NCBI GenBank assembly: GCA_013306675.1 | Contig: JABLUY010000266.1 | Location: forward strand, 1-46,687 | DNA length: 46,687 nt | Direction: 5' to 3' | Origin: Thraustochytrium sp. TN22 | Lineage: Eukaryota; Sar; Bigyra; Thraustochytrida; Thraustochytriidae | Shown here: piece by piece, positions 1-46,684 of the stretch | Position numbering within the stretch: the stretch's first letter is position 1 | Layout: each line of letters starts with the position of its first letter | Translations under genes and position numbers: made by a program | Notes under the pieces: model-generated | What the model saw: only the letters and a program-made list of their open reading frames with translations | What the model was told of the DNA's origin: nothing | The model's database searches: none

Positions 1-2598
1 GGAGGCGAGTTCTTTGGGGTCCCAGCAGAGCGCGTTCATGGCCTTGCTGAGGAGTTGGGGCGTGTCGCTGTCCTCGGAGAACATAATGCCGGCGTCGGTG
101 CAGTCGCGGAGGAGCGCGCCGATGGCGGTGCGGCGCTGGGCCTCGTTGTCGCCCTGCGAGATGACCTCTTGCACCCAGCCAAAGTCGTTGAGCAGCGCAA
201 AGGCGTCCGACCGCCTTCCGCATGTGATGAGGTGGTAGATGGCGTGCTTCATGGAGAATGGGTCGGTGCGCTTCTCGCTGCAGAAGTCGGCGAGGCGCTC
301 ATGGCCCTCCTGGGAATCCACGAAGAGATGGCGGCTATCGTCAACGTTGATGAGCCAGTCAGCCATGCGCTTGTGGAGGAGAGCGTACTTGCCATCACCG
401 GACTTGTAGATGAGGTTCCTCGCGTCGCCTAGAATCAGCTTCATGCGGGCCTCGCTCTTGCTGAGCGCGAACTGCAGCTGCTCGAAGGTGAGGGGCTCCC
501 GCGCTGCGACCATGGGCGCGAGCAGTGCGGTGTACTTGTCGCTGCCGCCGACCTTGTCCTTCAGACGCTGAAAGTATTCCTTGAACATGCCGCCCAGGCC
601 GATGGGAATGACGTCTTCACGCCGGATATCATCGGCCGTGAGCAGGCCGTTGTGCTTGGCGTTCCATGCCGCCCGGAGCGTGTCGGGCAAGAAGCTAGCC
701 CAGAGGAAGAGGCCCCCGGAGCGCTCCGTGAGGATGTCCGCGCATGCGTCCGCGTCGCGTGCGTCGACAGTGTCGCTCATGTCGTCGAGGAGGTGCCTCA
801 CGTGGAGGCGGATGTCGGCTTTGTTTTCCTCGTCCTCGAGCCTCAGAACCGTCCGGTCGTGGCTGACGTCTCCGATCGCACTCTCGATACCTCCCTCGGG
901 CCTCGTGCTGACAATCAGGCCAAGCCACGGCGGCAGCACCCGCCGCCAAGGCTGGATGACCTTCTGGAGCAGGTCGTCGGACGCGCTGCACTCGTCCAGG
1001 GCGTCCAGGAGGACTACCTGGCGCGGCCGGTCGCCCAGCTTGCTCAGGGGCTCGCGCAGCACAGCTTCGAAAACCGTGGCCACCTTGCTGCTGAGGAGCT
1101 TGGCGCGGCTTGGCGTCCCGAGCGCATCCGCAAAGCCGTCCACGCTCACGCAGAGCTGCCAGGCGATGCTCAGCAGAGCCTCCTGAGGCGACGCTGCCGT
1201 GTCGACGTCGTGTTTGAAGAAGTGGTACGCGGCGACCACGATCGCCGGCCTGTCCTTGCCGCTGCGCCGCCACATGCGTTTGGCGAGCGTGGCGCGCGTC
1301 GCTGGGGCTGTATTTGGCTCGGTCTGACCGAGCGCGCCGCCCCTGGAGCACACCTCGCCCATAATGACGCTCTTGCCGATGCCGCCGGCGCCCTCCAGCA
1401 CAAAGACGGGGCTCGCGGCTTGCTGGTGGCTCGCGGCTTGCTGGTCCCAAGCGCTTAGTTCGTCGAGGACCCTGGTGCGCGTGCCGGGGGTGAACTTCTT
1501 TGCATTGCCCTTCGCCCTGGTCTCGGAGCTCCTCGGGTCGAGGGCCGCGTACAGGTCTCTCATCTTGGGCGTGAAGTTGAAGGCAGCAGACGCCTCCGGT
1601 TTGCGCATGCGTTCGCGGATCTTCTCGGCGAGGTTCGACAGGACAGACGCCTCGGGCATGGCACACACGTCCACGGGGTCTAGGCGCGAAAGCGACAGTT
1701 GGAACTCGCCGCGCCAGTGCGAGCGCGCACTCATCATCTTCGGCTCTGCTGCCGCGACCACGATGCGGTCGAAGCGTTGCGAATACCCGTGGCGGAACTC
1801 CTTGAGGCAGTTGTCCTCCGGTTTCCCGCTGTTGATCTTGCTCATGTAGCCTTCGGTCGCAACGACCAGGAATACCTTGGAGCCTTCGATGCCACGCGAC
1901 ATGGCGCGGTTGACGCTCCCAGCCATCTCCCGTTCATCCAGCCAAACCTTGAGCCCGTCCGCCTCGAGCGCCACCGCGATCTCTTTGGCACGATCGTGCA
2001 CGTGATTGTCCTTGCCCCACTCGTGGGAGATGAAGACGTCCCACTCGCGGTCGAGCTGCTCGCCGCGCGCCTTGCGTTCGATGTTCTTGGCGATCTCCGA
2101 CGCCTTTTCCGCGCTCGGCTCACAAAAGTCCACATACAGCTCGTTGGCCATGGTCCAGCTCAGCGCGCCTCGCCACGCCTTTTGCGCCAGCATGCTCTTG
2201 TCCACCACGACCGGCACCAGCTTGCCGGGCAGCGCGCCGTCCGCGGCCATGAGGAGCGCCTCGTCCTCGCGCTGCAGCGCTTGGCTCACGACCACCACGG
2301 CCGCCGTGGCCCCGTTCGCCTTTGCCACCCGAATTTCCTCTGCTGTGGAGGCCGTCTGCAGCGTCTGCGCAATCTGCCGCGGCAAGGCCTTCGCGAGCTG
2401 CCCGGCCTTGACCCCGTCCGCCGGCGCGTGCACCACCACGACGTCCACGCCGCCCCTTGCCCCGCTCGAGCTCACGCGCGGGGTCGCCGCTGCCGCCGCC
2501 GCCGCCGCCGCCGCTCCTGCACGTACGCTCGCGCGAGCACTCTCCCTGCGCTCGTCGCGCGCGCGCCGCGCGAGCCCGAGCAGCCGCAGCATCATCAT
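1..2598 (-). CDS. TIR-NACHT STAND NTPase, C-terminus beyond window
   Basis: The minus strand is open through the left window edge, giving about 866 codons. Residues 30-39 are an Ala run. Residues 51-165 look like a degenerate TIR/flavodoxin-type fold, with strands VDVVVVHAP, AAVVVVSQ and KLVPVVVD. Residues 186-290 are a clear TIR domain: WDVFISHEWGKD at its start, then LKVWLDEREMAGS, and NCLKEF, where Glu267 matches the catalytic glutamate of TIR NADases. A NACHT NTPase follows: Walker A GAGGIGKS at 403-410, Walker B VVLLDALDEC at 528-537, sensor STRPE at 564-568. Next is a winged-helix-like part (LLHKRMADWLIN) and the helical linker that precedes WD40 repeats in many STAND proteins (FALLNDFGWVQEV, ALLRDC). 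Known: TIR-STAND proteins sense pathogens and signal by oligomerising and often by cleaving NAD. Inferred: a WD40 sensor lies off the left edge. The start is uncertain. I chose the triple ATG at 2598; in-frame ATGs also exist at 2805 and 2931, and an in-frame stop lies near 3258. Confidence 0.88.
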   Translation of the reverse strand, partial: MMMLRLLGLARRARDERRESARASVRAGAAAAAAAAAATPRVSSSGARGGVDVVVVHAPADGVKAGQLAKALPRQIAQTLQTASTAEEIRVAKANGATAAVVVVSQALQREDEALLMAADGALPGKLVPVVVDKSMLAQKAWRGALSWTMANELYVDFCEPSAEKASEIAKNIERKARGEQLDREWDVFISHEWGKDNHVHDRAKEIAVALEADGLKVWLDEREMAGSVNRAMSRGIEGSKVFLVVATEGYMSKINSGKPEDNCLKEFRHGYSQRFDRIVVAAAEPKMMSARSHWRGEFQLSLSRLDPVDVCAMPEASVLSNLAEKIRERMRKPEASAAFNFTPKMRDLYAALDPRSSETRAKGNAKKFTPGTRTRVLDELSAWDQQAASHQQAASPVFVLEGAGGIGKSVIMGEVCSRGGALGQTEPNTAPATRATLAKRMWRRSGKDRPAIVVAAYHFFKHDVDTAASPQEALLSIAWQLCVSVDGFADALGTPSRAKLLSSKVATVFEAVLREPLSKLGDRPRQVVLLDALDECSASDDLLQKVIQPWRRVLPPWLGLIVSTRPEGGIESAIGDVSHDRTVLRLEDEENKADIRLHVRHLLDDMSDTVDARDADACADILTERSGGLFLWASFLPDTLRAAWNAKHNGLLTADDIRREDVIPIGLGGMFKEYFQRLKDKVGGSDKYTALLAPMVAAREPLTFEQLQFALSKSEARMKLILGDARNLIYKSGDGKYALLHKRMADWLINVDDSRHLFVDSQEGHERLADFCSEKRTDPFSMKHAIYHLITCGRRSDAFALLNDFGWVQEVISQGDNEAQRRTAIGALLRDCTDAGIMFSEDSDTPQLLSKAMNALCWDPKELAS

Positions 2599-8183: not shown

Positions 8184-8252
8184 TTACTGCTTCTGGCGTG
8201 CGGCCTGGCCGAGTTGGGTGCGGCGGCAACGCTGGGCAAAGGTGAGCGAGCA
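8095..8252. repeat. Perfect 79-bp tandem duplication at the kinesin stop codon
   Basis: Bases 8095-8173 and 8174-8252 are identical, head to tail. The inner copy holds the last 22 codons and stop of the kinesin. The outer copy, past the stop, repeats the same peptide end (SLTFAQRC... to RQKQ stop). The unit is not a multiple of three, so a shifted kinesin frame also ends in this peptide. No mismatches means a very recent duplication or an assembly artefact. Confidence 0.95.
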
Positions 8253-11200
8253 GAGGGTCTCGGAGGCGTTCCACTCGACGGGAGAGACATTGACGAACAT
8301 GAGGACCTTGGACGCGCCGGAGAGGGAATCTTGGAGCAGGTAGGTGAGCTTGGAGTCACGAAAGGGAACGTGGTCCTGCTTCTCGTTGCCAAGGGCCTGA
8401 ATGACGTTGCCGAGCGCGGAGAGCGACTTGTTGATGGCCTTGGCCTCGGTGAGCATGCCGCCGGAGGCGTTGGTCTTGTCGAGGCGCTCGGAGCCGGCGA
8501 GGTCGATGAGATTGAGCTTGGAGCGCGTGGTGAATTTGTCGTGCTTGGCGACGAGCGTGACGGTGACGACGAGGTGGGAGCGCGAGGAGTGCTGGTTGAC
8601 ATTGTGCTGGCCGACGGTGCGGTTCTGCAAGCCGCGGCGCATGAGGTCCTCGACGGCCTCGAGCGACTCGATGCGCGCCTGCTCGAGGCCGGGGACGTGC
8701 AGGCCGTGCTGGCCCTGGCGAACCTCGAGCTTCTTGCGCACCTGGTGCTGCGGGAGCTGCTTGGGGTCCACGGGCGGCGCGAAGAGGTCACGGATGGACT
8801 CGTTGTAGATCTCCAGCATGGACATCTCGAGCTCGTACTGGACAAGGCCTTGACGCTCCTCGACGGTGCGAAAGAGCGTCTCGAAGGTGCGGTGGATGAC
8901 GCCGCGGTCCGAATCCGTGCCATCCATGGTATAGGTCTTGCCTGAGCCGGTCTGGCCATAGGCGAAGATGCAGACATTGTAGCCGTCGAGAGCGGATTGC
9001 ACGAGCGGCTCGACCTCGTTGAAGACCTGGGCCTGCTGCGAGGTGGGCTGGAAGACCTGGTCGAACTCGAAGAGGTCCTCCTGGTCGCGGCAGGCGAGCG
9101 ACTGCTGCAGCTGAATCTCGCCCTCGTTCGGGAAGCGCACGACGACCTCGGCGCGGCCGGAGCGCGTCTCGTGCGCCAGCACGGGGCGCACGCGGCAGTA
9201 CACGCGAATGTTGCCTTGCAGGTCGACGAGCTTGTTGTGGAGCGCCCGGCGCTTGCGAATCTCGCCCGTGAGGCGGTCCTGCGCGGCGGCAAGTGCCTCG
9301 CGAAGACGCTCAAGCTCCATGGGGTCGATCTCGTCCGGCTTGGGCGCGCTGCGCAGGGCGTCCAGCTCGAGCTGCAGCGCTGCGGCGCGCTGTGCCTCGG
9401 CCTCGGCCTGCGCGCGCGCCTCCTCGGCCTGCGCCTGCGCCTGGCCCGCCTGCGCGCGCAGGCGCTCCTCCTGCGCCTGGAGCTCCTGCTTGCTGGCGGC
9501 GTCGGTGCGCGCGTCGTGCGCACGAATGGCCGTCTCCATCTCCTCCTTGCAGCGCGCCAGGCTCTGCTCGAGAGCGCGGACCTTATCCTTGCTGCGGCGC
9601 AACTTGGTCTCCAGGTCAACGAGCTCCTGCTCGTGCGCATCCTGCTGCGAGGGCGCGGCGCTGAGCTCCTCGACCTTGGCCTGCGCGGCAGCCAGCTCGC
9701 GGCGCAGCTGCGCGGCGGCGGCGGTCTCCCGCGCGAGCTCCTCCTTGGCGGCCTGCGCGGCCTTGTCGCGGACGTCGCGCTCGGCGGCCTCGCGCTCTCG
9801 CCCGCGCGCCGCGCTTTGCGCGTCCTCGCGCGCCGCCAGGAGCTGCGTCTGCGCCTCATCCAGCTCGGCGTCCTTGTCGCGCAGGGCCTGCCGCAGCTGC
9901 AGCACCGACCCCGTGAGCTCCTCCAGCTTGCGCTGGGCGCCATCATCGCCCTGGGCGCGCGCCTTGCCGGCGGCCTCGGCGGCCTCGGCGGCCTCGCGAG
10001 CTGCCTGGAGCTCGCGCTGCAGGGCCTCGGCGGCGTCCTGCGCGCGCTGCGTCTCGTGCCGGAGCGTCGCAGAAGTGCCAAACTCCTGCTGCAGCTCCTC
10101 CTTGACCTGCTGCAGCGCGCGCTGCAGCACGTCGCGCTCGTTCTCCGCACGCGTTGCCCGTCGCTCCGCGGCGTGCACGCGCTCCTGCGCGTCCACCAGG
10201 TCAGCCTGCCGCTGCGAGAGCGCGTCCTGCAGCCTGTTGGCCTCCTCGCGCAGCGCCCGTGTCTCGGCGGCCGCCTCCCCGGCGGCGTCGAGGTCCTCGC
10301 CGCCGGCGCTGCCGCGCTTGGGGCTGCCGCGCTGCTTGGAGGGCGACCCACGCGCCGAGGCGGAGGCCAGCTCGAGGCGCGCCGTCTGCAGCGCGCGCTC
10401 GAGGCTGTCAGCGCGGTCTTGCGCCTGCTGCGCGTCCTGCCGCAGGCGCGCCGTGGTCTTGAACTCGAGGTCCAGCTCCACCTTGACCTTGTCGAGCGCC
10501 GACTGCACGACGTCGCGCTCGTTCGAGGCGCGGTTCAGCTGCCGCTTGGCAGCCTCGAGCGCCTCGGTGGCGGCCAGCAGCTCGTTCGACTTGGCCGAGA
10601 GCTCGGATCGGGCGCGCTGCAGCTTTTGATCGGACGCCTCGTCCGCCGCGGACGCCTGGCCAGACGAGCCCTCCGCCTTCTCCTCGCGCTCGCGCAGGCG
10701 CTGCTCCGCCTCTCGCGCGCGCTGCTTGGCGAGCGCGCGGTCCTCCTCGGCCTGCGCGCACTGGCGGCGCGCCTGGTCCAGCTCGGCCTCGAGCGCCACG
10801 ACGCGCTTGCGCGAGGTCAGGCTCGCCTCGATCTCCTCGTTCAGCTCCTGCTTGACCTGGCCCAGCGCGTGCCCTAGGCTGCGCTTGGCGGCCGTCATGT
10901 CTTCGAGCTGCTGCGCGAGCGCCTCGCGCTCGCGCGCCTCGGCGGCCGTGCTGCTGCCAGCCGACCCCTGCGCGGCCGCTTTGTCGCTCGTGCCGCGCGC
11001 GCGCTGGCGTTCCGCGTCGAGGTCCTCGCGCAGCTCGCTCAGGGCCTCCTCGGATCGCGCGCGCTCCTCTTCGAGCGTGCGCCGCAGCGCCGCCACGCGC
11101 GCGCGCTCCTCCTCGAGCTGGCCCTCCAGCGACTGGGTGGCCTGGGCGCGCGCCGCGAGAATCACGTTATTGTACTCGTGGATCAGGTCCGGGACTTCTG

Positions 11201-11933
11201 AGAAGAGCACGCTGGCCGAGTACCACGCCGACGACCCGTCGCTGTACACCGCCTCGTACTGCATATCCGCCTCGCCGTCTGGCAGCGCCGACGCGCGGTG
11301 GTCTGTGATGCGCACGATGTCCGGCTGCGCCTGCCGTTGTGCCGCCCCGTCCTCCGCCTCGGCGTCCTCGACGGCGAGGCCGTGCTCCCCCCCCTCCTCC
11401 TCCTCGAGCGCGTGCTGCAGCCGCCGCTGCCGCTGCCGCCATCGTTGCCGTTCCTGCTCGTCCTCTGGCGCGTTCGGCGGCCTCTCGCTCTGCGCGTGCA
11501 GGCTGTACGGGTCGAGCCCGAGCTCCTCGGTCATCTTGCGCTCGCGCTCGGAGAAGTCCTCGATCTCACGGCCCTTGTTGCTGGCGCTGCTGACGGCGCT
11601 CGCCGCCGAGAAGCGCGACGACCCAAGCGAGTCGCGTCGGCGCGCGCGCTCCTCGCGCGCGATGTCCGGATTGCTGCGCAGCTTGACGAAGAGCCGCCGG
11701 TACGGCTCGTCCAGCGGGTTTTCCCACGTGCTCTGGCCCGTTGTTGCGTTGTAGTAGTACGTGCCCTCCTCGCTGTCCACCACCTGCCACTCCTGCGGCA
11801 GCTCCGCCGTCAGCGACTCCTCCGCGAGCCACAGGAAGCTCGCGTCGTGTACCGGGTCCATGCCCAGCGTCACCGCGTGATCCATGACGGCCTTGCGGAA
11901 GACCTCCTCGCTCGCCAGCCCTTGCGCCGCCAT
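8184..11933 (-). CDS. Kinesin-14 (C-terminal motor) with N-terminal CEP164-type WW domain
   Basis: A 1249-residue protein from ATG 11933; the open frame runs upstream to 12134 but is low-complexity there. Residues 34-85 resemble the N-terminus of the centriolar protein CEP164: FLWLAEESLTAELPQEW, then YYYN, then STWENPLDEPYRRL, with the two signature tryptophans at 49 and 70. Residues about 140-900 are a long Glu/Ala/Gln-rich coiled coil. The motor begins near 907 with the kinesin-14 neck GNIRVYCRVRPV. P-loop GQTGSGKT is at 993-1000, switch I NVNQHSSRSH at 1111-1120 and switch II DLAGSE at 1144-1149. Known: kinesin-14s are minus-end-directed microtubule motors of spindle and cilium; CEP164 sits at basal-body distal appendages. 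The combination suggests a basal-body or ciliary motor, by inference. Confidence 0.93.
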   Translation of the reverse strand: MAAQGLASEEVFRKAVMDHAVTLGMDPVHDASFLWLAEESLTAELPQEWQVVDSEEGTYYYNATTGQSTWENPLDEPYRRLFVKLRSNPDIAREERARRRDSLGSSRFSAASAVSSASNKGREIEDFSERERKMTEELGLDPYSLHAQSERPPNAPEDEQERQRWRQRQRRLQHALEEEEGGEHGLAVEDAEAEDGAAQRQAQPDIVRITDHRASALPDGEADMQYEAVYSDGSSAWYSASVLFSEVPDLIHEYNNVILAARAQATQSLEGQLEEERARVAALRRTLEEERARSEEALSELREDLDAERQRARGTSDKAAAQGSAGSSTAAEAREREALAQQLEDMTAAKRSLGHALGQVKQELNEEIEASLTSRKRVVALEAELDQARRQCAQAEEDRALAKQRAREAEQRLREREEKAEGSSGQASAADEASDQKLQRARSELSAKSNELLAATEALEAAKRQLNRASNERDVVQSALDKVKVELDLEFKTTARLRQDAQQAQDRADSLERALQTARLELASASARGSPSKQRGSPKRGSAGGEDLDAAGEAAAETRALREEANRLQDALSQRQADLVDAQERVHAAERRATRAENERDVLQRALQQVKEELQQEFGTSATLRHETQRAQDAAEALQRELQAAREAAEAAEAAGKARAQGDDGAQRKLEELTGSVLQLRQALRDKDAELDEAQTQLLAAREDAQSAARGREREAAERDVRDKAAQAAKEELARETAAAAQLRRELAAAQAKVEELSAAPSQQDAHEQELVDLETKLRRSKDKVRALEQSLARCKEEMETAIRAHDARTDAASKQELQAQEERLRAQAGQAQAQAEEARAQAEAEAQRAAALQLELDALRSAPKPDEIDPMELERLREALAAAQDRLTGEIRKRRALHNKLVDLQGNIRVYCRVRPVLAHETRSGRAEVVVRFPNEGEIQLQQSLACRDQEDLFEFDQVFQPTSQQAQVFNEVEPLVQSALDGYNVCIFAYGQTGSGKTYTMDGTDSDRGVIHRTFETLFRTVEERQGLVQYELEMSMLEIYNESIRDLFAPPVDPKQLPQHQVRKKLEVRQGQHGLHVPGLEQARIESLEAVEDLMRRGLQNRTVGQHNVNQHSSRSHLVVTVTLVAKHDKFTTRSKLNLIDLAGSERLDKTNASGGMLTEAKAINKSLSALGNVIQALGNEKQDHVPFRDSKLTYLLQDSLSGASKVLMFVNVSPVEWNASETLCSLTFAQRCRRTQLGQAARQKQ

Positions 11934-11969
11934 CCTCCCGCCGCGCCACCGGCGCGCGCCGCCCGCCCG

Positions 11970-11995
11970 CCTGCCTGCCTGCCTGCCTGCCTGCC
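11970..11995. repeat. (CCTG)n microsatellite in kinesin leader
   Basis: Six to seven CCTG units lie 37-62 bases upstream of the chosen kinesin ATG, on its non-coding side. The same motif sits just upstream of the PX-START gene. Confidence 0.9.
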
Positions 11996-12265
11996 AGGCC
12001 GCCGCCGTCCGAGCGTGCCTTGATTGCGTTGGTGAGCTGTACTCTGTGCCGAGGCTGCTGAGGGAAAAACGCGAGGCCGTTACACCACCGAGTCCAAGTC
12101 TCACTGGCAGTGCCACTGCCAATGGCATTCGCACTCGCAGTCAGACCTGCAAAGCCTAGTGGGCCACGACTCGGACGGAGACTCGAACTCACATCTGGCA
12201 GATCGTGCTGCGCGTGCTGCGCGTGCTGCGCGAGCAACCAGGCTCGCGAAACGGGAGGCACAGTT

Positions 12266-17728: not shown

Positions 17729-18991
17729 TCAAAACCATTCACCGTAGGACATGTGGTCGTCGATGCCGCCGTCAATGGCCCAGGAGAAGCTAGGGCTGTC
17801 GCGGCCCTCGGTGTAGCCGCAGTTGTTGCACTTCATGGTGCCAAAGTGCTTGTAACCCATCCATCCGTAGGGGACCGAGGGCACGGGGTCCTTCTCGTAA
17901 ACAAGACGGAGCTGCTCGAACTTGCCATGGACCTCGTCGGAGAGTGAGTCGGCGAGCGTGCGCGGGGAGCCGAAGTTGACGTAGACGGTGCGCTTGAGGT
18001 TCCACAGGCTGTCCTTGTAGATGACGTAGGCGAGCGCGTTGAGAATGCCAGCGCCGCGCGAGTAGCCGGCCAGCACGAGGCGGTCCGTGGAGATGCACTT
18101 GGACTGGATGCGGTCCCAGATCTCCATGCGCATGTCATTGTAGGGGATGGTAAAGCCGTCGTAGCCGTTGCTGTAGAGCTGGTACGTGGAGCAGGACTTG
18201 TAGGTGGAGCACCACCAGAAGGTGTAGCTCTCGCAACCGCACGCCTCGGCGCGGTAGGTGTACTCCTTGATGGACATGAGGTTCTCGTCGCCCGTGTTGA
18301 GGTTACCAGCCCAGTCCGCCACGTCGCCACTCTCTTCGGCGATGACCCAGCAGATGTTGCCGGAGGAGCCCTGGGCCGTGCCATAGATGTTGTCCGACGT
18401 GCGGAAGACGGTGGCGCGGTCGCTCCCGGAGACGACCTCGTCCGGGTACGTGGTGGACTCGATCTGGGCCCAGGCCTCGGTGGCGAGCGTGGTCTGCGAG
18501 GAGGAGAGCGCCAGCTGTCGGTAGTTCTCGCGGCGCACCGCGTCAAGGCCGCCACCGTTGCGCAGCTCCCGCCGCGAGTACGTGCCGCCCTGCTCGCTGT
18601 CGCGCAACGCCTTGAGCGCGTCCATGATCTCGGTCGTCATGAACTGGTCGTCCCAGGCCGCCGGGTCCGCCTCATAGTCGTCCAGGAGCGAGTTGATTTG
18701 CGTGGCCGTCAAGTTGGACGTGAAGGCGACGTTTGACTCATCCTCAAAGGCATACTGAAGAGTCGCCTGGGCCTGCGAGAGCGGATCACCTGAAGAGCCA
18801 TCGCTGGACGACGTAGACGTGCTGAAGTGCCCGGCAAGGAAGCCCAGGCCGCCGGAGAGCCCCACCACACCCAGGACCACGAAGGCGCGGAGAGCATGCT
18901 TGCGCCACTGCGTGCCGGCCGAGGAGGAAGCCGAGCCGACCGGGTCCACTGCCTCGACCTTGTAGCTCGGGTTCGCGGCAGCCACCTGCAT
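17729..18991 (-). CDS. Class 3 lipase, type II membrane protein
   Basis: 420 residues from the ATG at about 18991; a GTG extension to 19138 is unlikely. Residues 33-54 (ALRAFVVLGVVGLSGGLGFLAG) form a single signal anchor after a short cytosolic tail, so the catalytic part should be lumenal or extracellular. The alpha/beta-hydrolase elbow RLVLAGYSRGAGILNALAYV gives GxSxG with Ser311. VNFGSPR follows, then EKDPVPSVPYGW with Asp368 and the C-terminal DDHMSYGEWF with His413, a complete lipase_3 triad in the standard order. A cysteine-rich stretch (CGCESYTFWWCSTYKSC, 251-267) and CNNCG near 388 suggest disulfides, consistent with a secretory location. Family members hydrolyse acylglycerols or phospholipids; the actual substrate is unknown. 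Confidence 0.9.
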   Translation of the reverse strand: MQVAAANPSYKVEAVDPVGSASSSAGTQWRKHALRAFVVLGVVGLSGGLGFLAGHFSTSTSSSDGSSGDPLSQAQATLQYAFEDESNVAFTSNLTATQINSLLDDYEADPAAWDDQFMTTEIMDALKALRDSEQGGTYSRRELRNGGGLDAVRRENYRQLALSSSQTTLATEAWAQIESTTYPDEVVSGSDRATVFRTSDNIYGTAQGSSGNICWVIAEESGDVADWAGNLNTGDENLMSIKEYTYRAEACGCESYTFWWCSTYKSCSTYQLYSNGYDGFTIPYNDMRMEIWDRIQSKCISTDRLVLAGYSRGAGILNALAYVIYKDSLWNLKRTVYVNFGSPRTLADSLSDEVHGKFEQLRLVYEKDPVPSVPYGWMGYKHFGTMKCNNCGYTEGRDSPSFSWAIDGGIDDHMSYGEWF

Positions 18992-20912
18992 GCTGGTTCT
19001 TGGTGCCAAGTCAAAGTTCAAAAGGCCTGAGAGTGAGAGGAGTTGGCGATTTGCTCCCGCATCGCCTCGGCCAGGCAGCCAGGCCTCGGGCCGGGCATGT
19101 GAGCGAGGCGCCCCAGCGGCTTCATGCCAACGCGCCACGAGCGGCGCTAGCTCCCAGGTTAGTAGCTAGCTAGCTCCCTGGGCATGGCAGATCGACAAGC
19201 AGCCAGGCAGATCCATCGACGAGCATTCGACGAGCTGCGAGCATTCAAGACTGCAACGGCCTTGCCAGCTGAGGCCTGCTCATCATCCTAGCGCGAACTG
19301 ACCCTGGCTAACTCCGAGTCCGACTCTGTGGCTGTGCCTGGCAAAATACGAACCACGTGTGCACTGTGACAAAGTGAGGGGAAAGTGCTGGCATGTCCTC
19401 TTAGACTCCTCTCTAGCTAGCTAGAGCCTCTGAGCTCGTCGCCATCATGAGCTCGGCGCGTAAAGGTATCTTGGACCGGATCATGCGCGATCTGCCAACC
19501 TACGCAGCATGGCGCCGATGGCGGAACCAGCAACGCTTCAACTCACAGGCCGTGGCACGACGTCCTGGAGCAGAGGTGGCACCGAGCCCGAGCCTGTGAC
19601 CAGCTGCCACTTCCGCAGGCCGCAGGCGCAGCCGCGCGAGGAGGATTCAGCTCCGCGCCATGTACCTGGCGCGACAGGATCTGAACCGTTTGATCCTACG
19701 GCGAGCTCTAATAAGAGAGCTGGGCAGCCTGGGCGCACCGCGACCCATTTACCTCGAAACGTCTTTCGCGGCTGCGCGCACTGCCAGGCGGCGCAGCGGC
19801 GCGCAGCGGCACGCAACGGCGCGCAGCGCGCCAGTCAAGACTTGGCCCAAAAGTGCGTCCTCCGTCCACAATTTCTTCGCGTACCTGGAGCCGTGCCTGG
19901 CGAGATGCCGGACCCATCGTGCCAAGCAGCCTATGCCCGCTCTCGCGCCCGCAAAATCTGATCCGGCATCATGCAGCCTCATCCGAGTCTCAGGAAGCTG
20001 GGCCCCGGGCCCCATGTCCAAGTCTTGACTCCTCTTCATAAGAGCGTGCGCCGTTGGCGAGCTTGCTCTCGCCAGTCCGCTTGCCTGTCGCCGGTCGTGG
20101 CACGGTAGCTACTAGAGCCTGGCCAGCGGCGCAGCGCACCTTGCACAGGACAAATTGCGGACATACAAAGACAAAGGAAGCCTAGCCCGCCGCAGGCTGG
20201 CCGCCGTGACAGCATGTGCTGCAAGACCCTCTCCGGCGCCCGGCCGTGACTTGCACCGCACTGCGCATTCAGTTATCTTGCCTCCCCGCGAGCCCTCCTC
20301 GTCCTCCTCGCCGTCCTCCTCCTCCTCGTCCCCCTTCACGGGCCTCGCCCTTCGCTGCTTTATCTCCCCGTGTTCCCGTTCCCCTGTTCGCGCCCGGTGC
20401 GCGCACCCTCGGAGGTCCCCGCGCGCGGCGGGCGGCGTGGCGGCGTTGTTCGCGAAGGCGGCGGTTGTGCGCGTGTGGGCCGGCGGTTGCCGCACTTGCG
20501 GCGCGCGGCGCAAGTGGCGGCGCGGGCCTTGGCGGCACTTGCGCGGCGCGCGGCAAGGGCGCCGTGCGCGCGCGCAAGCGGACCTTCGCGAAGGCCGGCG
20601 CCACGGACGGGTGCGAGGGCGGGCGGCAGAACCCAATCAAATCCAGATCAGATCAGACCGAGGCAGGCTTCGAGCGCGGCGGTACGTGCGGCAGGGCGGA
20701 GGGCGAGCGAGGCGCGCGGGCGAGCAGGCGCGCGAGCGAGCGCAAGGGCGCAAGAGCGCGGCGCGCGAGGGCCGGCGAGCCCCGGAGAGCGGCATCGGGG
20801 ATCGCACCGCGCGGCGCGACGGTTGGCGGCGGTGCCAGGTGGCGAGAGGCGCAGGCAGGGACGAGTGGCTGACGACTGGGCGGAGGCGCAGACAGAAGCG
20901 AGGCAAGGCAAG
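18992..20912. other. Long divergent spacer, lipase / HSP90
   Basis: No convincing gene. It contains CTAG tracts (19163-19175; the perfect palindrome ctctagctagctagag at 19411-19426) and a gcgcagcggc repeat near 19785-19830. A CCTCCTCGT pyrimidine tract lies at 20280-20335 and two heat-shock-element-like sites are listed separately. The open plus-strand frame upstream of HSP90 from 20370 is Arg/Ala-rich and is best read as leader. Confidence 0.5.
20449..20592 (+). promoter_or_regulatory. Two heat-shock-element-like sites upstream of HSP90
   Basis: TTCGCGAA, the nTTCnnGAAn core of a heat shock element, occurs at 20449-20456 and 20585-20592, about 460 and 325 bases before the HSP90 ATG. Each has only two of the usual three or more alternating units, and TTCGCGAA is not rare in GC-rich DNA. 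This is a candidate site only. Confidence 0.35.
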
Positions 20913-43336: not shown

Positions 43337-46300
43337 TTAGGCTACATTGACACGGGCCTCGGAAGACCCAGAGCTAGGCCAGCGTTCGCTGGACCGCGCA
43401 TGGTCGTCGGTGGGCGATAAGTGATTGTTATGCAAATGCAGAGCATCGATCTCTGCGGCAGCCGCGGCCGCAGCCGCAGCCGCAGCCGCGGCGGCGGCTG
43501 TGGAGAGCGCAGCGGATGAAGCGGCGGAGGAGTGCCGCGACTGTGAGTCGACGGTCTTACTGTGGTTGGAGTTGGGCATGCTGCGTGTGCCGCGGACGGA
43601 GGTGGGCTCCTCACGGTACATGCGCGTGGCCTCCTCGGTGAGCGACTCAAAGAGACTCTCGCTGCGGTTCGCGTGGTAGCTGGAGCGCTCATCTTCGTCT
43701 TCAGAGCCGGCGTTGGCGCCGGCGCGAGAAAGGTCCGAGGAGCGGCGGCGGCGGCTTGCGTCATGCAGGCGGTCGCCCGAGTCCGAGGCTGCGTCGCTGT
43801 CAAGCACGAGGCGCCGGCGCAGGTCCTGTTGGACTTCGGCGTGATGCGAGGGCGACTCCTGCTCGGAGGCGTGCTTGGCCATCTCGCGCAGACCGTGCGC
43901 GCCGGGCGCGGACTTGGGTCGCGTGGCCACCCTGGGCGGGGGCGAGCGGCGGCCGTCGGCGTTGGCATCGCGGCCGCGATCGCGGCGCGGGTGATTGGCC
44001 CGTTTGATGTTGAGACGGCCGCGGGAGTCGTCTTCCGTCTGGTAGTGCACCGCCCAAACCTTGGGCACCATGACGTAGAGAGCCGCAAAAAGGTTGGCCA
44101 GAAACACGGCCAGGCACATAATAAGGAACTTGATCTGCGTCTCGGTCTCGCCAACGGCGAGGATGATGGGCGCAGCGATGAGGTAGAGCTGAAACTGCCA
44201 AATGACGGCAAGCGCCAAGGTCTTGCCCTCCTGGAAGGAGCTGTCCACGTCGCGCACGCGGTAGGCGATGGTGGCGCCTGCCACGTAGAGCCCGAGGTGA
44301 AAGACGAGCAGGAGCCAGAAGAAGCAGCGAACAACGACGTCGTCCGCAAAAGTACAGGAGGCGTAGCTGCTGGTCGGGTTGTCGAAGGAGTCCGTGGTGA
44401 CGACGCGACGCGTCCACGAGAGCGGGCCGACGACCGTGGGCACGAGCAGAAGCACAACGTTGACGACGAGCACCGAGGCCATGACCTTGAGAAGCGAGGA
44501 GGCACGGATGAGGAGCGAGCGCAGGCTCGGGTTGTGGAAGATGCGCATGATGCGGTAGAGCTTGAGGATCATGGCCGAAGCCGTCATGGTGGTGCCGAGG
44601 CTGAGCAGCCAGACGAAGGCGTTGCAGGCCACGGAGGCGCCCGCGTCGCCGCTTTCCTGCTCGTCCGGATATGCGTAGGCGAAGAGGCTGGCAACGGCGA
44701 CGCAGATGCCGACGAGGAAGCATAGCAAAAATTCTGGCTGCGCCTTGCGCACGACGCGCGTGCGGCGGTTGACCCAGACCCAGACGCCGAGCCCGAGGCA
44801 GAGCGCAAAGGTGAGGAGCGCCATGACGACGGCGAGGGCGCGCAGCGCGATGCCCACGTAGTGCGTGTCCTCGAAGGGAAGGTCGGTCTGGAGCGGGATC
44901 TCGGTGGTGTCGCCGGGCGGGAAGACGAGGTTGTCCTGGAGCTCCCAGCTTCCGTTCCAGCTGCCGACGCTGACTGTGCGCACGACGTTGGTCTCCGGGT
45001 TGATGAGGAAGCTGCGCAGGCGGAAGTAGGCTGTGCTCGGCACTCGCGATCCCGTGTCCTCGTCGAAGCGGACCCAGCCCGAGGCCCCCTGAAAGGGGAA
45101 GCGCGTCTGGTTTTTGATGAGGTCAATGAGCACGCCGCCGCGAAGCCAGCGCGGGCGCGCATCCTCGCCGTCGAAGGACAAGGCGGTCGTGGCCGAGGCG
45201 TTGGCCGGGACCTGGGCGCCCGCGTCCAAGAACGCCAGGCAGGCGGCGCGGCAGGCCGTGGCCACGGCATCGTAGGCGTAGGCGACGTCGTAGATGAGAT
45301 CATCCAGGGCGTCGGCGCTGAAGAGCGACTCGGAGATGGCCACGGTCATGTTGTCGCCCGAGAGATTGTCGTCGAGGCTGGCGGTGGGGTCGGAGAAGTT
45401 GGCGCCTCCTGGCATGTTGGCATTGATGAGATCCAAGTACTTGACGTACGAGGGCCACTGGTCGCGCAGCACGCGGAAGCGCTCGTTGGACTCGTCGCCG
45501 GCAACGGCCTGTACAATCTGCGAGGCGTTGAGCACGGTGGCGTACTGCGGGTACTCCTGCACCACCTGGGTGAGCTCGTCGGCGCCGATGGCGTCGCTGA
45601 ACACGAAGAGCGTGCCGCGGCCCGTCATGCCGCGCGAGACGAACTGCTCCAGGATATCCGGCATGTCGCCCATGAAGGCGATGACGAGAATGACGTTGAG
45701 CTGGCTGGCCTCCAGGCCGCTGATGGCGTTGGCGATGGACAGCACGTCCGCCTCGCGGTACGAGATGGCCTGCATCTCGATGCCGCGGCTGTCGTTCTCC
45801 TTGAGGAGCGCCTCGCGGAAGCCGTCGCCGTAGGAGTCGTCCACGTAGAGCATGCCGACGTGGCCGAGCCCGTAGCGTTGGAAGAGGTCGGCGAGCGCCG
45901 ACGAGGTGGCGCTGTCGGACGGGATGGTCCGCACGAACTCGCCGTGGATGCTTTTGTCGTCCAGGTCCGGCGAGGTGGCCCAGTACGACACCACGGGCAC
46001 CTCGTTCACGTTGGCCAGGATCGAAACGGGCAGCGCCGTCAGCGAGCGCACCGGCCCGATGATGAAGTGCGTCGGGTGCTCGGAGCTCTGCACGCCGTCC
46101 AGGTAGGACTTGACGGCCACGGACTGCGTGCTTCGCGAGTCGTACGAGGTGAAGCCGAACTCGAGCGCCTCGCAGCCGGCCATTTGCTCGCTGCCCAGCT
46201 CCGCGACCACGTCCCCGTTGCGCTCCTCGCAGTGCCGCGCCGCGATCATCGTCGCCGCGGCCTTGCTCGTGCTCAGCTTGCCCAGCACCGTGCGCACGCC

Positions 46301-46684
46301 CTCCTGGCTGTACGTCGTCACGCCGCCCAGCAGCTGCAGCGTCACCTGCATCTTCGACTCCGACCCTGCCGCCGCGGCGCGCCGCCTCCCGGCCTGCGCC
46401 CGCGCGGCGGCCGCCGCGGCGGAGGGGCCCGCGGCCCGGGCTCCCGGCGGCGCCCGCGCATCCGCTGCCCCCAGCTCTCGCGCGGGCTCCTCCGCGCGCG
46501 CGCGCTTCCCGCCGCCGCTGCGCCGCTGCGCGCGTCCGGTCTGGCGCGCCTCGTCATCGCGCATGGCCTGCGCGGCGGTCGCTCCCGCCATCCCCGCTGC
46601 CGCCGCGGCCGCCGCGCCGCGCGCCGCCGCGCCCGAGGCCGCGGCGCGCGCGCGCGGCGGTAGCAGCGGCAGCAACGGCGGCAC
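43337..46684 (-). CDS. Class C (GABA-B-like) G-protein-coupled receptor; start uncertain
   Basis: Up to 1115 residues in an open frame that reaches the right window edge. The Venus-flytrap ligand-binding domain (about 112-640 in this numbering) starts MQVTLQLLGGVTTYSQEGV. It contains HFIIGPVRSLTALPVSILANVNEVPVVSYWATSPDL, GMLYVDDSYGDGF and AISGLEASQLNVILVIAFMG, with several N-glycosylation sites. The 7-TM domain (about 640-900) shows RRTRVVRKAQPEFLLCFLVG, CNAFVWLLSLGTTMTASAMILKLYRIMRIF and WQFQLYLIAAP, as in GABA-B receptors. A long Ser/Arg-rich cytosolic tail ends with 17 alanines (43444-43495) and a His/Asn segment. The first 111 residues are Ala/Arg-rich and contain no signal peptide. The true start may be ATG 46351 or 46591, or an upstream exon outside the window. 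Role: plasma-membrane receptor for a small ligand, probably an amino acid derivative. Confidence 0.9.
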   Translation of the reverse strand: MPPLLPLLPPRARAAASGAAARGAAAAAAAGMAGATAAQAMRDDEARQTGRAQRRSGGGKRARAEEPARELGAADARAPPGARAAGPSAAAAAARAQAGRRRAAAAGSESKMQVTLQLLGGVTTYSQEGVRTVLGKLSTSKAAATMIAARHCEERNGDVVAELGSEQMAGCEALEFGFTSYDSRSTQSVAVKSYLDGVQSSEHPTHFIIGPVRSLTALPVSILANVNEVPVVSYWATSPDLDDKSIHGEFVRTIPSDSATSSALADLFQRYGLGHVGMLYVDDSYGDGFREALLKENDSRGIEMQAISYREADVLSIANAISGLEASQLNVILVIAFMGDMPDILEQFVSRGMTGRGTLFVFSDAIGADELTQVVQEYPQYATVLNASQIVQAVAGDESNERFRVLRDQWPSYVKYLDLINANMPGGANFSDPTASLDDNLSGDNMTVAISESLFSADALDDLIYDVAYAYDAVATACRAACLAFLDAGAQVPANASATTALSFDGEDARPRWLRGGVLIDLIKNQTRFPFQGASGWVRFDEDTGSRVPSTAYFRLRSFLINPETNVVRTVSVGSWNGSWELQDNLVFPPGDTTEIPLQTDLPFEDTHYVGIALRALAVVMALLTFALCLGLGVWVWVNRRTRVVRKAQPEFLLCFLVGICVAVASLFAYAYPDEQESGDAGASVACNAFVWLLSLGTTMTASAMILKLYRIMRIFHNPSLRSLLIRASSLLKVMASVLVVNVVLLLVPTVVGPLSWTRRVVTTDSFDNPTSSYASCTFADDVVVRCFFWLLLVFHLGLYVAGATIAYRVRDVDSSFQEGKTLALAVIWQFQLYLIAAPIILAVGETETQIKFLIMCLAVFLANLFAALYVMVPKVWAVHYQTEDDSRGRLNIKRANHPRRDRGRDANADGRRSPPPRVATRPKSAPGAHGLREMAKHASEQESPSHHAEVQQDLRRRLVLDSDAASDSGDRLHDASRRRRSSDLSRAGANAGSEDEDERSSYHANRSESLFESLTEEATRMYREEPTSVRGTRSMPNSNHSKTVDSQSRHSSAASSAALSTAAAAAAAAAAAAAAAEIDALHLHNNHLSPTDDHARSSERWPSSGSSEARVNVA
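43444..43495. repeat. Poly-alanine (GCX)n tract in GPCR tail
   Basis: About 17 consecutive Ala codons (mixed GCC, GCG, GCT on the minus strand) near the receptor C-terminus. The mixed codons indicate a tract that is not a simple slippage repeat. Confidence 0.9.

What the first reader, a model, noticed from the sequence alone, without database searches (positions are those of the whole stretch)
1..2598. TIR-NACHT immune-type NTPase in a unicellular eukaryote
One gene joins a TIR domain, a complete NACHT NTPase (Walker A 403-410, Walker B 528-537, STRPE 564-568) and the winged-helix/helical linker that normally leads into WD40 repeats. TIR-STAND proteins are well known in bacteria, plants and some animals. 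Here the TIR keeps the glutamate (267) in the position of the NADase catalytic residue, so it may kill or signal by NAD cleavage. Defence systems of this kind are little described in free-living protists. This is my best candidate for an undescribed system.
Basis: partly seen in the sequence, partly recalled or inferred. Interest (0 to 1): 0.8.

Follow-up and report, generated by a model that had tools for sequence, protein, structure and literature searches.

The report
Variable TIR-NACHT receptor family in protist
A single-celled eukaryote, probably a thraustochytrid, carries a family of immune-receptor-like genes that join a TIR domain of the NAD-cutting type, a molecular switch and a repeat propeller whose copies vary at four surface positions, much as in fungal self/non-self genes, so even single cells may keep a diversified recognition repertoire.

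Summary
Window 1-2598, minus strand, encodes a TIR-NACHT-winged-helix STAND protein, cut by the contig start before the expected repeats. The TIR model matches SARM1 and TIR-1 best. The contig is eukaryotic; the genome looks like a thraustochytrid.

The finding is larger than one gene. The genome has 123 TIR_2 matches: 24 before a NACHT-type match, 36 after a COR match, 63 other. Of 30 family frames, 25 run on into WD40 repeats. Repeats within an array can be 93-98% identical. Their variation falls on four positions that correspond to those under selection in fungal HET-D/HET-E: 36 nonsynonymous to 1 synonymous change, against 18 to 16 elsewhere, in four homogeneous genes.

Best explanation: non-self receptors that oligomerise on ligand binding and cleave NAD+. 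Architecture and variability are shown; ligand, oligomerisation and enzymology are inferred. A bacterial contig has the same architecture; searches found no report in thraustochytrids. New variant of a known kind.

The parts
1..2598 (-). degenerate TIR - TIR - NACHT - winged-helix STAND gene (P0001, 866 aa), C-terminus cut by the contig start
2059..2457 (-). residues 48-180: degenerate first TIR, Leu opposite Glu267; present in the 7 family rows of alignment A3
   Evidence: profile-profile match to the family TIR, E 3.5e-15, with negative controls; no significant Pfam or PDB sequence match; single-sequence fold uninformative, pLDDT 44.5
1564..2052 (-). residues 183-345: TIR domain as modelled (Pfam TIR_2 188-281 = 1756-2037)
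1798..1800 (-). Glu267 codon, NADase catalytic position
952..1428 (-). NACHT-type NTPase core (NPHP3_N), residues 391-549
1369..1392 (-). Walker A GAGGIGKS
988..1017 (-). Walker B VVLLDALDEC
895..909 (-). STRPE (sensor-like motif; the name is recalled)
265..531 (-). winged helix (HTH_TANC1), residues 690-778
1..150 (-). residues 817-866, linker that in relatives leads into WD40 repeats; 90% identical to a stretch of contig C277 that continues into WD40

Best explanation
The gene is one member of a large family of intracellular STAND (NLR-like) receptors. The WD40 propeller, present in relatives and missing from this window because the contig ends, binds a non-self or altered-self protein with its top surface. 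Binding releases the NACHT/winged-helix switch, which exchanges nucleotide and oligomerises. That brings TIR domains together, and they cleave NAD+ through Glu267, killing or alarming the cell. The family keeps its repertoire varied by duplicating near-identical repeats, in part exchanging them, while selection changes four surface positions per repeat. Shown here: domain order, intact Walker motifs, TIR fold by prediction, conserved Glu, a large family (counts are lower bounds), repeat homogeneity in some genes, position-specific variation. Inferred: ligand binding, oligomerisation, NADase activity, cell death, selection as the cause of the variation, and whether the target is a pathogen or kin.
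For: Pfam order TIR_2, NPHP3_N, HTH_TANC1. Relatives continue into WD40: 25 of 30 family frames have three or more WD-type motifs, mostly 40 aa apart (L038 has four motifs, irregularly spaced, and is not counted); Pfam WD40 in 4 of the 4 relatives scanned. TIR model best matches SARM1 6o0u and TIR-1 8p2m, both E 1.1e-5; the 50 matches listed of 76 at E<=0.001 are TIR-bearing proteins. The Glu267 position is Glu in 26 of 30 rows of the wide alignment, in the 16 of these that I chose for A1 and in 8 of 8 TIRs of other architectures, the 8 best of 123. Variation: the four highest-entropy positions of the 40-aa unit over 17 genes are 21, 23, 37 and 39. They flank conserved V22 and invariant D38 and correspond to codons 7, 9, 25 and 27 reported under strong positive selection in Podospora NWD genes (PMC1805685, passages read). 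At those positions pN/pS is 3.17 against 0.34 at the other 36 (39 repeat pairs of at least 90% DNA identity); variation is concentrated there in 17 of 17 genes at p<0.05 and 15 of 17 at p<0.01; 113 distinct four-residue combinations in 139 units. In four homogeneous genes changes are 36 nonsynonymous to 1 synonymous at the four positions and 18 to 16 elsewhere (Fisher p 8e-6).
Against: No function was measured. The window gene itself carries no WD40 (contig end). Sequence matches of the TIR to solved structures are weak: best single-sequence E 0.021, best profile match a SEFIR protein, E 1.3e-4. The model has mean pLDDT 71 from a 4-row alignment, and query TM-scores in the list run from 0.46 to 0.65. 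Some family members are decayed or diverged: L022 lacks Walker A and B, L016 has Gln at the catalytic position, L038 has no recognisable TIR, L014 and L036 have gaps there. PADLOC models hit the window protein (ThsB 2.4e-8, Avs1b 2.3e-7) but neither of the two relatives scanned with it. The NPHP3_N model also rings in 9 of 14 prokaryotic control genomes, 5 over the cut-off, so weaker matches among its 46 may be other P-loop NTPases. Repeat pairs are not independent, and at 75% identity pN/pS at the four positions is only 1.12, as expected if silent sites saturate but also weaker as evidence. I saw the entropy ranking before I read the fungal paper, and the correspondence rests on the paper's description of which positions flank conserved sites; the two spacings differ (16 residues here, 18 there).
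Confidence: 0.7

Rival explanations
1. Kin recognition (allorecognition) rather than defence, a sub-case of the best explanation: the propeller reads an allelic product of the same species, as HET-D and HET-E read HET-C, and TIR activation kills or separates unlike cells.
For: The variable positions match those of fungal allorecognition NWD genes; repeats are homogenised within some arrays.
Against: Thraustochytrids are not known (recalled) to fuse cells like filamentous fungi; the genome also has 36 COR-TIR matches, which this model does not need. Genome data cannot separate the two.
Confidence: 0.2
2. Housekeeping scaffold: a NACHT-WD40 protein of the TEP1/TANC/nephrocystin kind, with the TIR as a protein-binding module.
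For: The best Pfam NTPase model is NPHP3_N and the winged helix is HTH_TANC1; TEP1 propeller models score among the WD40 hits.
Against: About thirty paralogues, repeat homogeneity in some of them and replacement-rich surface codons are not expected of a scaffold; the catalytic-position Glu is kept in most rows.
Confidence: 0.08
3. TIR without NADase role (overlaps with the others): it works only by assembly, or as another nucleotide enzyme.
For: Not all TIRs carry the catalytic Glu or show NAD+ hydrolysis, and some work by assembly (PMC9153377, passages read); the best profile match is a SEFIR protein; a degenerate TIR precedes the window's TIR.
Against: Glu kept in 26 of 30 rows; SARM1, TIR-1 and AbTir, known NADases (recalled; the AbTir entry title says NAD+ consuming), are the closest structures.
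Confidence: 0.2
4. Bacterial sequence in the assembly, or a recent transfer from bacteria that is now decaying.
For: A Burkholderiales MAG contig (L069) has the same four-part architecture.
Against: The window has kinesin, HSP90, myosin and a class C GPCR; TIR matches lie on 84 contigs; L069 is 25% identical over the NACHT region; 49 of 54 family matches have no stop inside.
Confidence: 0.03

Closest known systems
Fungal NWD/HNWD genes (Podospora HET-D, HET-E, HET-R)
   Same: NACHT followed by WD40 arrays, near-identical repeats in some genes, corresponding surface positions variable with excess replacement (PMC1805685 and PMC4986451, passages read)
   Different: TIR effector in place of the HET domain (itself remotely TIR-like), 40-aa rather than 42-43-aa repeat, about thirty rather than ten members, another eukaryotic lineage; repeat exchange between members seen here mainly for one gene, L013
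Bacterial TIR-STAND proteins with WD40 (L069; Avs-type STANDs)
   Same: TIR_2, NPHP3_N, HTH_TANC1 and WD40 in the same order; the PADLOC Avs1b model hits window residues 470-817 (E 2.3e-7)
   Different: 25% identity in the NACHT region; no second TIR before the first in L069; its few repeats do not look homogenised, by eye; found only in the centre genome of a 398-genome phylum sample, with few candidates scored per genome
Plant TIR-NB-ARC-LRR receptors (TNLs)
   Same: N-terminal TIR, central STAND NTPase, C-terminal repeats; RUN1, RPV1 and RPP1 among the structural matches
   Different: NACHT-type rather than NB-ARC NTPase, WD40 rather than LRR
SARM1 / TIR-1
   Same: best structural matches of the TIR; Glu in the corresponding position
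   Different: ARM-SAM-TIR order and no NTPase (recalled)
Brown algal ROCO candidate immune receptors
   Same: another set of expanded GTPase/NTPase receptors in stramenopiles (PMC11378527, search listing and start of abstract only)
   Different: the window gene is not a ROCO; COR-TIR genes do occur elsewhere in this genome

Membership tests
TIR domain | TIR fold | tested here: met
   Pfam TIR_2 E 2.8e-14; model pLDDT 71, pTM 0.73; the 50 listed PDB matches are TIR-bearing proteins
TIR NADase | catalytic Glu | tested here: met
   Glu267 aligned with a TIR-1 Glu; Glu in 26 of 30 rows, 16 of 16 chosen rows; the catalytic role of the TIR-1 residue is recalled
TIR NADase | NAD+ cleavage | not testable with these tools
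   needs an enzyme assay
STAND/NLR | NACHT or NB-ARC with Walker A and B | tested here: met
   NPHP3_N above cut-off, PF05729 below it; motifs intact
STAND/NLR | winged helix after the NTPase | tested here: met
   HTH_TANC1 E 8.8e-8
STAND/NLR | C-terminal superstructure-forming repeats | tested here: inconclusive
   absent from the window because the contig ends; present in 25 of 30 family frames
STAND/NLR | ligand-induced oligomerisation | not testable with these tools
   needs biochemistry
Fungal HNWD family | N-terminal HET domain | tested here: not met
   TIR_2 instead; no HET model among Pfam hits at E<=1
Fungal HNWD family | repeats over 85% identical | tested here: met
   in relatives only: runs of 3 or more such units in 5 of 22 genes with at least 3 usable units
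Fungal HNWD family | excess replacement at the four propeller positions | tested here: met
   in relatives only, by simple counting
Plant TNL | NB-ARC and LRR | tested here: not met
   no NB-ARC in P0001 at E<=1; 2 NB-ARC matches in the genome; WD40 in 4 of 4 relatives scanned, no LRR among the 25 best families shown for each
SARM1 orthologue | ARM and SAM domains with C-terminal TIR | tested here: not met
   no ARM or SAM model in P0001 at E<=1; TIR precedes an NTPase
Bacterial TIR-NACHT-WD40 STAND | same domain order | tested here: met
   L069 against the family; the window gene lacks its WD40 part

The most novel reading that the evidence does not exclude
The protist runs an actively diversifying recognition repertoire: WD40 arrays expand as identical units, and four surface codons per unit are then replaced, often by two or three base changes with little else altered, by a targeted or exchange-driven process under strong selection. 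This would be a repeat-based analogue of anticipatory immunity in a single cell, with two parallel TIR receptor classes (TIR-NACHT-WD40 and COR-TIR).
Probability: 0.2. Interest if true: 0.88.

Novelty: new variant of a known kind. Interest (0 to 1): 0.66.

Why it matters
NLR-type immunity is studied mainly in plants, animals, fungi and bacteria. A single-celled heterotroph with a TIR-based NLR family whose propellers vary at positions corresponding to those of fungal allorecognition genes would mean that diversified STAND recognition is not tied to multicellularity or hyphal fusion, and that the same solution arose, or was kept, in distant lineages. Thraustochytrids are cultured and some are transformable (recalled), so the NADase step, the ligand and the cost of the repertoire could be tested directly.

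Tried and rejected
Organism: a Rfam 18S search failed twice on the machine and a universal 18S pattern found nothing. I first thought of Cafeteria, but its four published assemblies are given as 34-36 Mb and 70-71% GC, and the contig counts visible to me (218, 170, 270; the fourth was cut off) differ (PMC6972860, passages). No match to the light-harvesting family PF00504, so a photosynthetic alga is unlikely. The PfaA search then pointed to a thraustochytrid.

Viral relatives: three viral scans found none. Structure of the N-terminal region: a single-sequence fold was too poor to use. Chance or sequencing error as the cause of the variable positions: unlikely, because variation concentrates on the same four positions in 17 of 17 genes. 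The five-position test used positions chosen after seeing the data; I rely on the four-position test. Only repeat units of exactly 40 aa were counted (139 units in 22 genes); other lengths were dropped. General exchange of repeats between clades: not shown. Over 231 gene pairs repeat identity and NACHT identity correlate at 0.64, and the 8 pairs with the largest excess of repeat identity all involve L013.
Full report
What the sequence shows. The gene runs on the minus strand from 2598 to 1 and is cut by the first base of contig C184. Its 866 residues contain TIR_2 at 188-281, an NPHP3_N-type NACHT core at 391-549 and a HTH_TANC1 winged helix at 690-778, all above Pfam cut-offs; the model named NACHT is below its cut-off. 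The contig is eukaryotic: kinesin, HSP90, a myosin head and a class C GPCR are encoded on it.

TIR and Glu267. A model of residues 183-345 from a four-row alignment (pLDDT 71.3, pTM 0.73) matches TIR domains in the PDB; the best are human SARM1 6o0u and C. elegans TIR-1 8p2m, both E 1.1e-5, and AbTir and RUN1 are among the first ten. phmmer aligns DNCLKEF with EDWVHKEL of TIR-1, which places Glu267 on a Glu that I recall as catalytic. The position is Glu in 26 of 30 family rows; the four others are gaps in L014 and L036 and Gln in L016 and L038, of which L038 has no recognisable TIR. It is invariant in the 16 rows that I chose for alignment A1 and in the 8 TIRs of other architectures that I held, the 8 best of 123. 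Sequence-only matches to solved structures are weak: single sequence best E 0.021; family profile best a SEFIR protein, 1.3e-4, then Cat1 TIR, 0.0087, and RPS4 TIR, 0.013.

A second, degenerate TIR. Residues 48-180 have no Pfam match better than E 0.15 and their profile no PDB match better than 0.19, but that profile (7 family rows) matches the family TIR profile with E 3.5e-15 over 116 columns. The match to the other-architecture TIR profile is E 7.1e-9 over 66 columns, while NACHT, winged-helix and three column-shuffled controls give 0.14 to 0.94. In both alignments the window has Leu opposite the catalytic-position Glu. A single-sequence fold was too poor to help.

A family, not a gene. The genome (37.9 Mb, 453 contigs) holds 123 TIR_2 matches at E<=1e-3, 114 above the cut-off, on 84 contigs. 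By position, 24 lie within 2.5 kb before an NPHP3_N match, 36 within 1.5 kb after a COR-A match, and 63 are neither. These are matches, not genes; some are tandem or split, and the search gives lower bounds. Of 46 NPHP3_N matches 23 have a TIR_2 match upstream and 23 do not; the model also rings in 9 of 14 prokaryotic control genomes, so some of the 23 may be other P-loop NTPases. A protein search with P0001 gives 54 matches including itself, with only 52 of 126 candidates scored. Of the 30 frames I examined (the window gene and 29 loci), 25 have three or more WD-type motifs, mostly 40 aa apart; the exceptions are the window gene and L014 (contig ends), L035 (repeats in another frame), L036 (partial copy) and L038 (four motifs, irregularly spaced). 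Pfam confirms WD40 in 4 of 4 relatives scanned. NB-ARC is nearly absent, 2 matches.

The propeller varies like a fungal allorecognition propeller. In 22 genes with at least three exact 40-aa units (139 units; other lengths dropped), mean identity within a gene reaches 98% (L025), 95% (L017), 93% (L026) and 87% (L018), and is as low as 40% in others. Five of the 22 meet the published criterion for internally conserved repeats, over 85% across at least 100 aa (PMC4986451, passages). In 17 genes with five or more units the four most variable positions are 21, 23, 37 and 39, flanking conserved V22 and invariant D38. Podospora NWD genes have four strongly positively selected codons that likewise flank two consensus sites, in the d-a loop and the b-c turn, on the top surface (PMC1805685, passages read). 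I ranked positions before reading that paper, and the equivalence is by description. At these four positions pN/pS is 3.17 (39 pairs, at least 90% DNA identity), 1.94 (56 pairs, 85%) and 1.12 (157 pairs, 75%), against 0.34, 0.49 and 0.41 at the other 36. Concentration on the four positions exceeds random sets at p<0.05 in 17 of 17 genes and p<0.01 in 15 of 17. In L017, L018, L025 and L026 together, changes from the gene's own consensus are 36 nonsynonymous and 1 synonymous at the four positions, with 14 of 37 involving two or three bases; elsewhere they are 18 and 16, with 3 of 34. Fisher p is 8e-6 for the first contrast and 0.004 for multi-base changes. Units within a gene are related, so these p-values are guides only.

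Exchange between members: suggestive. Repeats of L013 are 77% identical on average to those of L025, though the NACHT regions are 34% identical; but over 231 gene pairs the two identities correlate at 0.64, and the eight most discordant pairs all involve L013. On C277 (L035) a TIR-NACHT of another branch is interrupted; downstream, in another frame, comes a linker 90% identical to the last 50 residues of the window gene and then WD40 units resembling those of L017. This may be a recombinant pseudogene or an assembly fault.

Organism. A PfaA-type PUFA synthase scores 2540 bits in a 3044-aa frame, with a divergent 2083-aa frame beside it that matches the ketosynthase part of the same model; this is the thraustochytrid OrfA/OrfB arrangement (recalled). 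No PF00504 light-harvesting match was found. I take the organism to be a thraustochytrid, at about 85%; no 18S was obtained.

Comparison with what is known. TIR joined to an NTPase and LRR, WD40 or TPR repeats is described for plants and bacteria (PMC9153377, passages). Fungi have a small group of TIR-NLRs and many NACHT-WD40 proteins with HET and other effectors (PMC10197012 and PMC4986451, passages). Choanoflagellates were reported with SARM1 homologues and NACHT-LRR proteins but without the animal NLR family (PMC6040629, passages). A sponge paper says in passing that NLRX-type genes are known from bacteria, fungi and protists (PMC12909245, passages), so NLR-like genes in protists as such are not new. 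L069, a Burkholderiales MAG contig of 3.5 kb, has the same four parts; with one gene on a short contig its bacterial origin is not certain. L070, on a 72-kb Propionibacteriaceae contig, has TIR-NACHT with no WD40 match. Searches of the paper library for 'thraustochytri' with 'TIR domain' gave 0 papers, and 'labyrinthul' with 'NACHT' gave 1, on a desaturase by its title. In broader searches the listed titles and abstract beginnings showed no report of TIR-NACHT-WD40 in protists. Most subscription papers are not in that library.

Verdict. It works like an NLR by its anatomy; it meets the testable features of a TIR-STAND receptor apart from the repeats cut off by the contig end, fails the HET feature of the fungal family and the NB-ARC/LRR features of plant TNLs. 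Immune or allorecognition function and NADase activity remain inferred.

Noticed in passing
own genome, e.g. L002, L006, L007, L008: 36 TIR_2 matches follow a COR-A match within 1.5 kb on the same strand: a second expanded class, COR-TIR; a Roc part is seen only by eye.
   Followed up: partly
own genome C160:1247-4627: Four TIR_2 matches of equal score, each with one TGA, spaced 1043 bases apart: tandem duplicate copies.
   Followed up: no
L001:1279-3327: TIR at the end of a protein whose upstream part looks ARM/HEAT-like by eye, a SARM1-like layout; Pfam finds only the TIR.
   Followed up: no
L003, L005: TIR domains joined to Mind-bomb SH3 repeat domains (and, in L003, a ZZ finger).
   Followed up: no
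window 43340-46684, minus: Class C GPCR with ANF_receptor and 7tm_3 domains.
   Followed up: no
window 8187-12134, minus: Kinesin with a WW domain in its N-terminal part.
   Followed up: no
window 17732-19138, minus: Class 3 lipase gene (Lipase_3), the family to which plant EDS1 belongs (recalled); probably coincidence.
   Followed up: no
own genome C124:26703-41142: Divergent PfaA-like and ketosynthase-bearing frames, the thraustochytrid PUFA synthase arrangement (arrangement recalled).
   Followed up: partly
window 2539-2598, minus: The window protein starts with an Arg-rich stretch (MMMLRLLGLARRARDERRES) that could be a targeting peptide; relatives begin differently.
   Followed up: no
own genome C242:28655-32878: A partial TIR-NACHT copy with one in-frame TAG lies directly upstream of the complete copy L013.
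   Followed up: no
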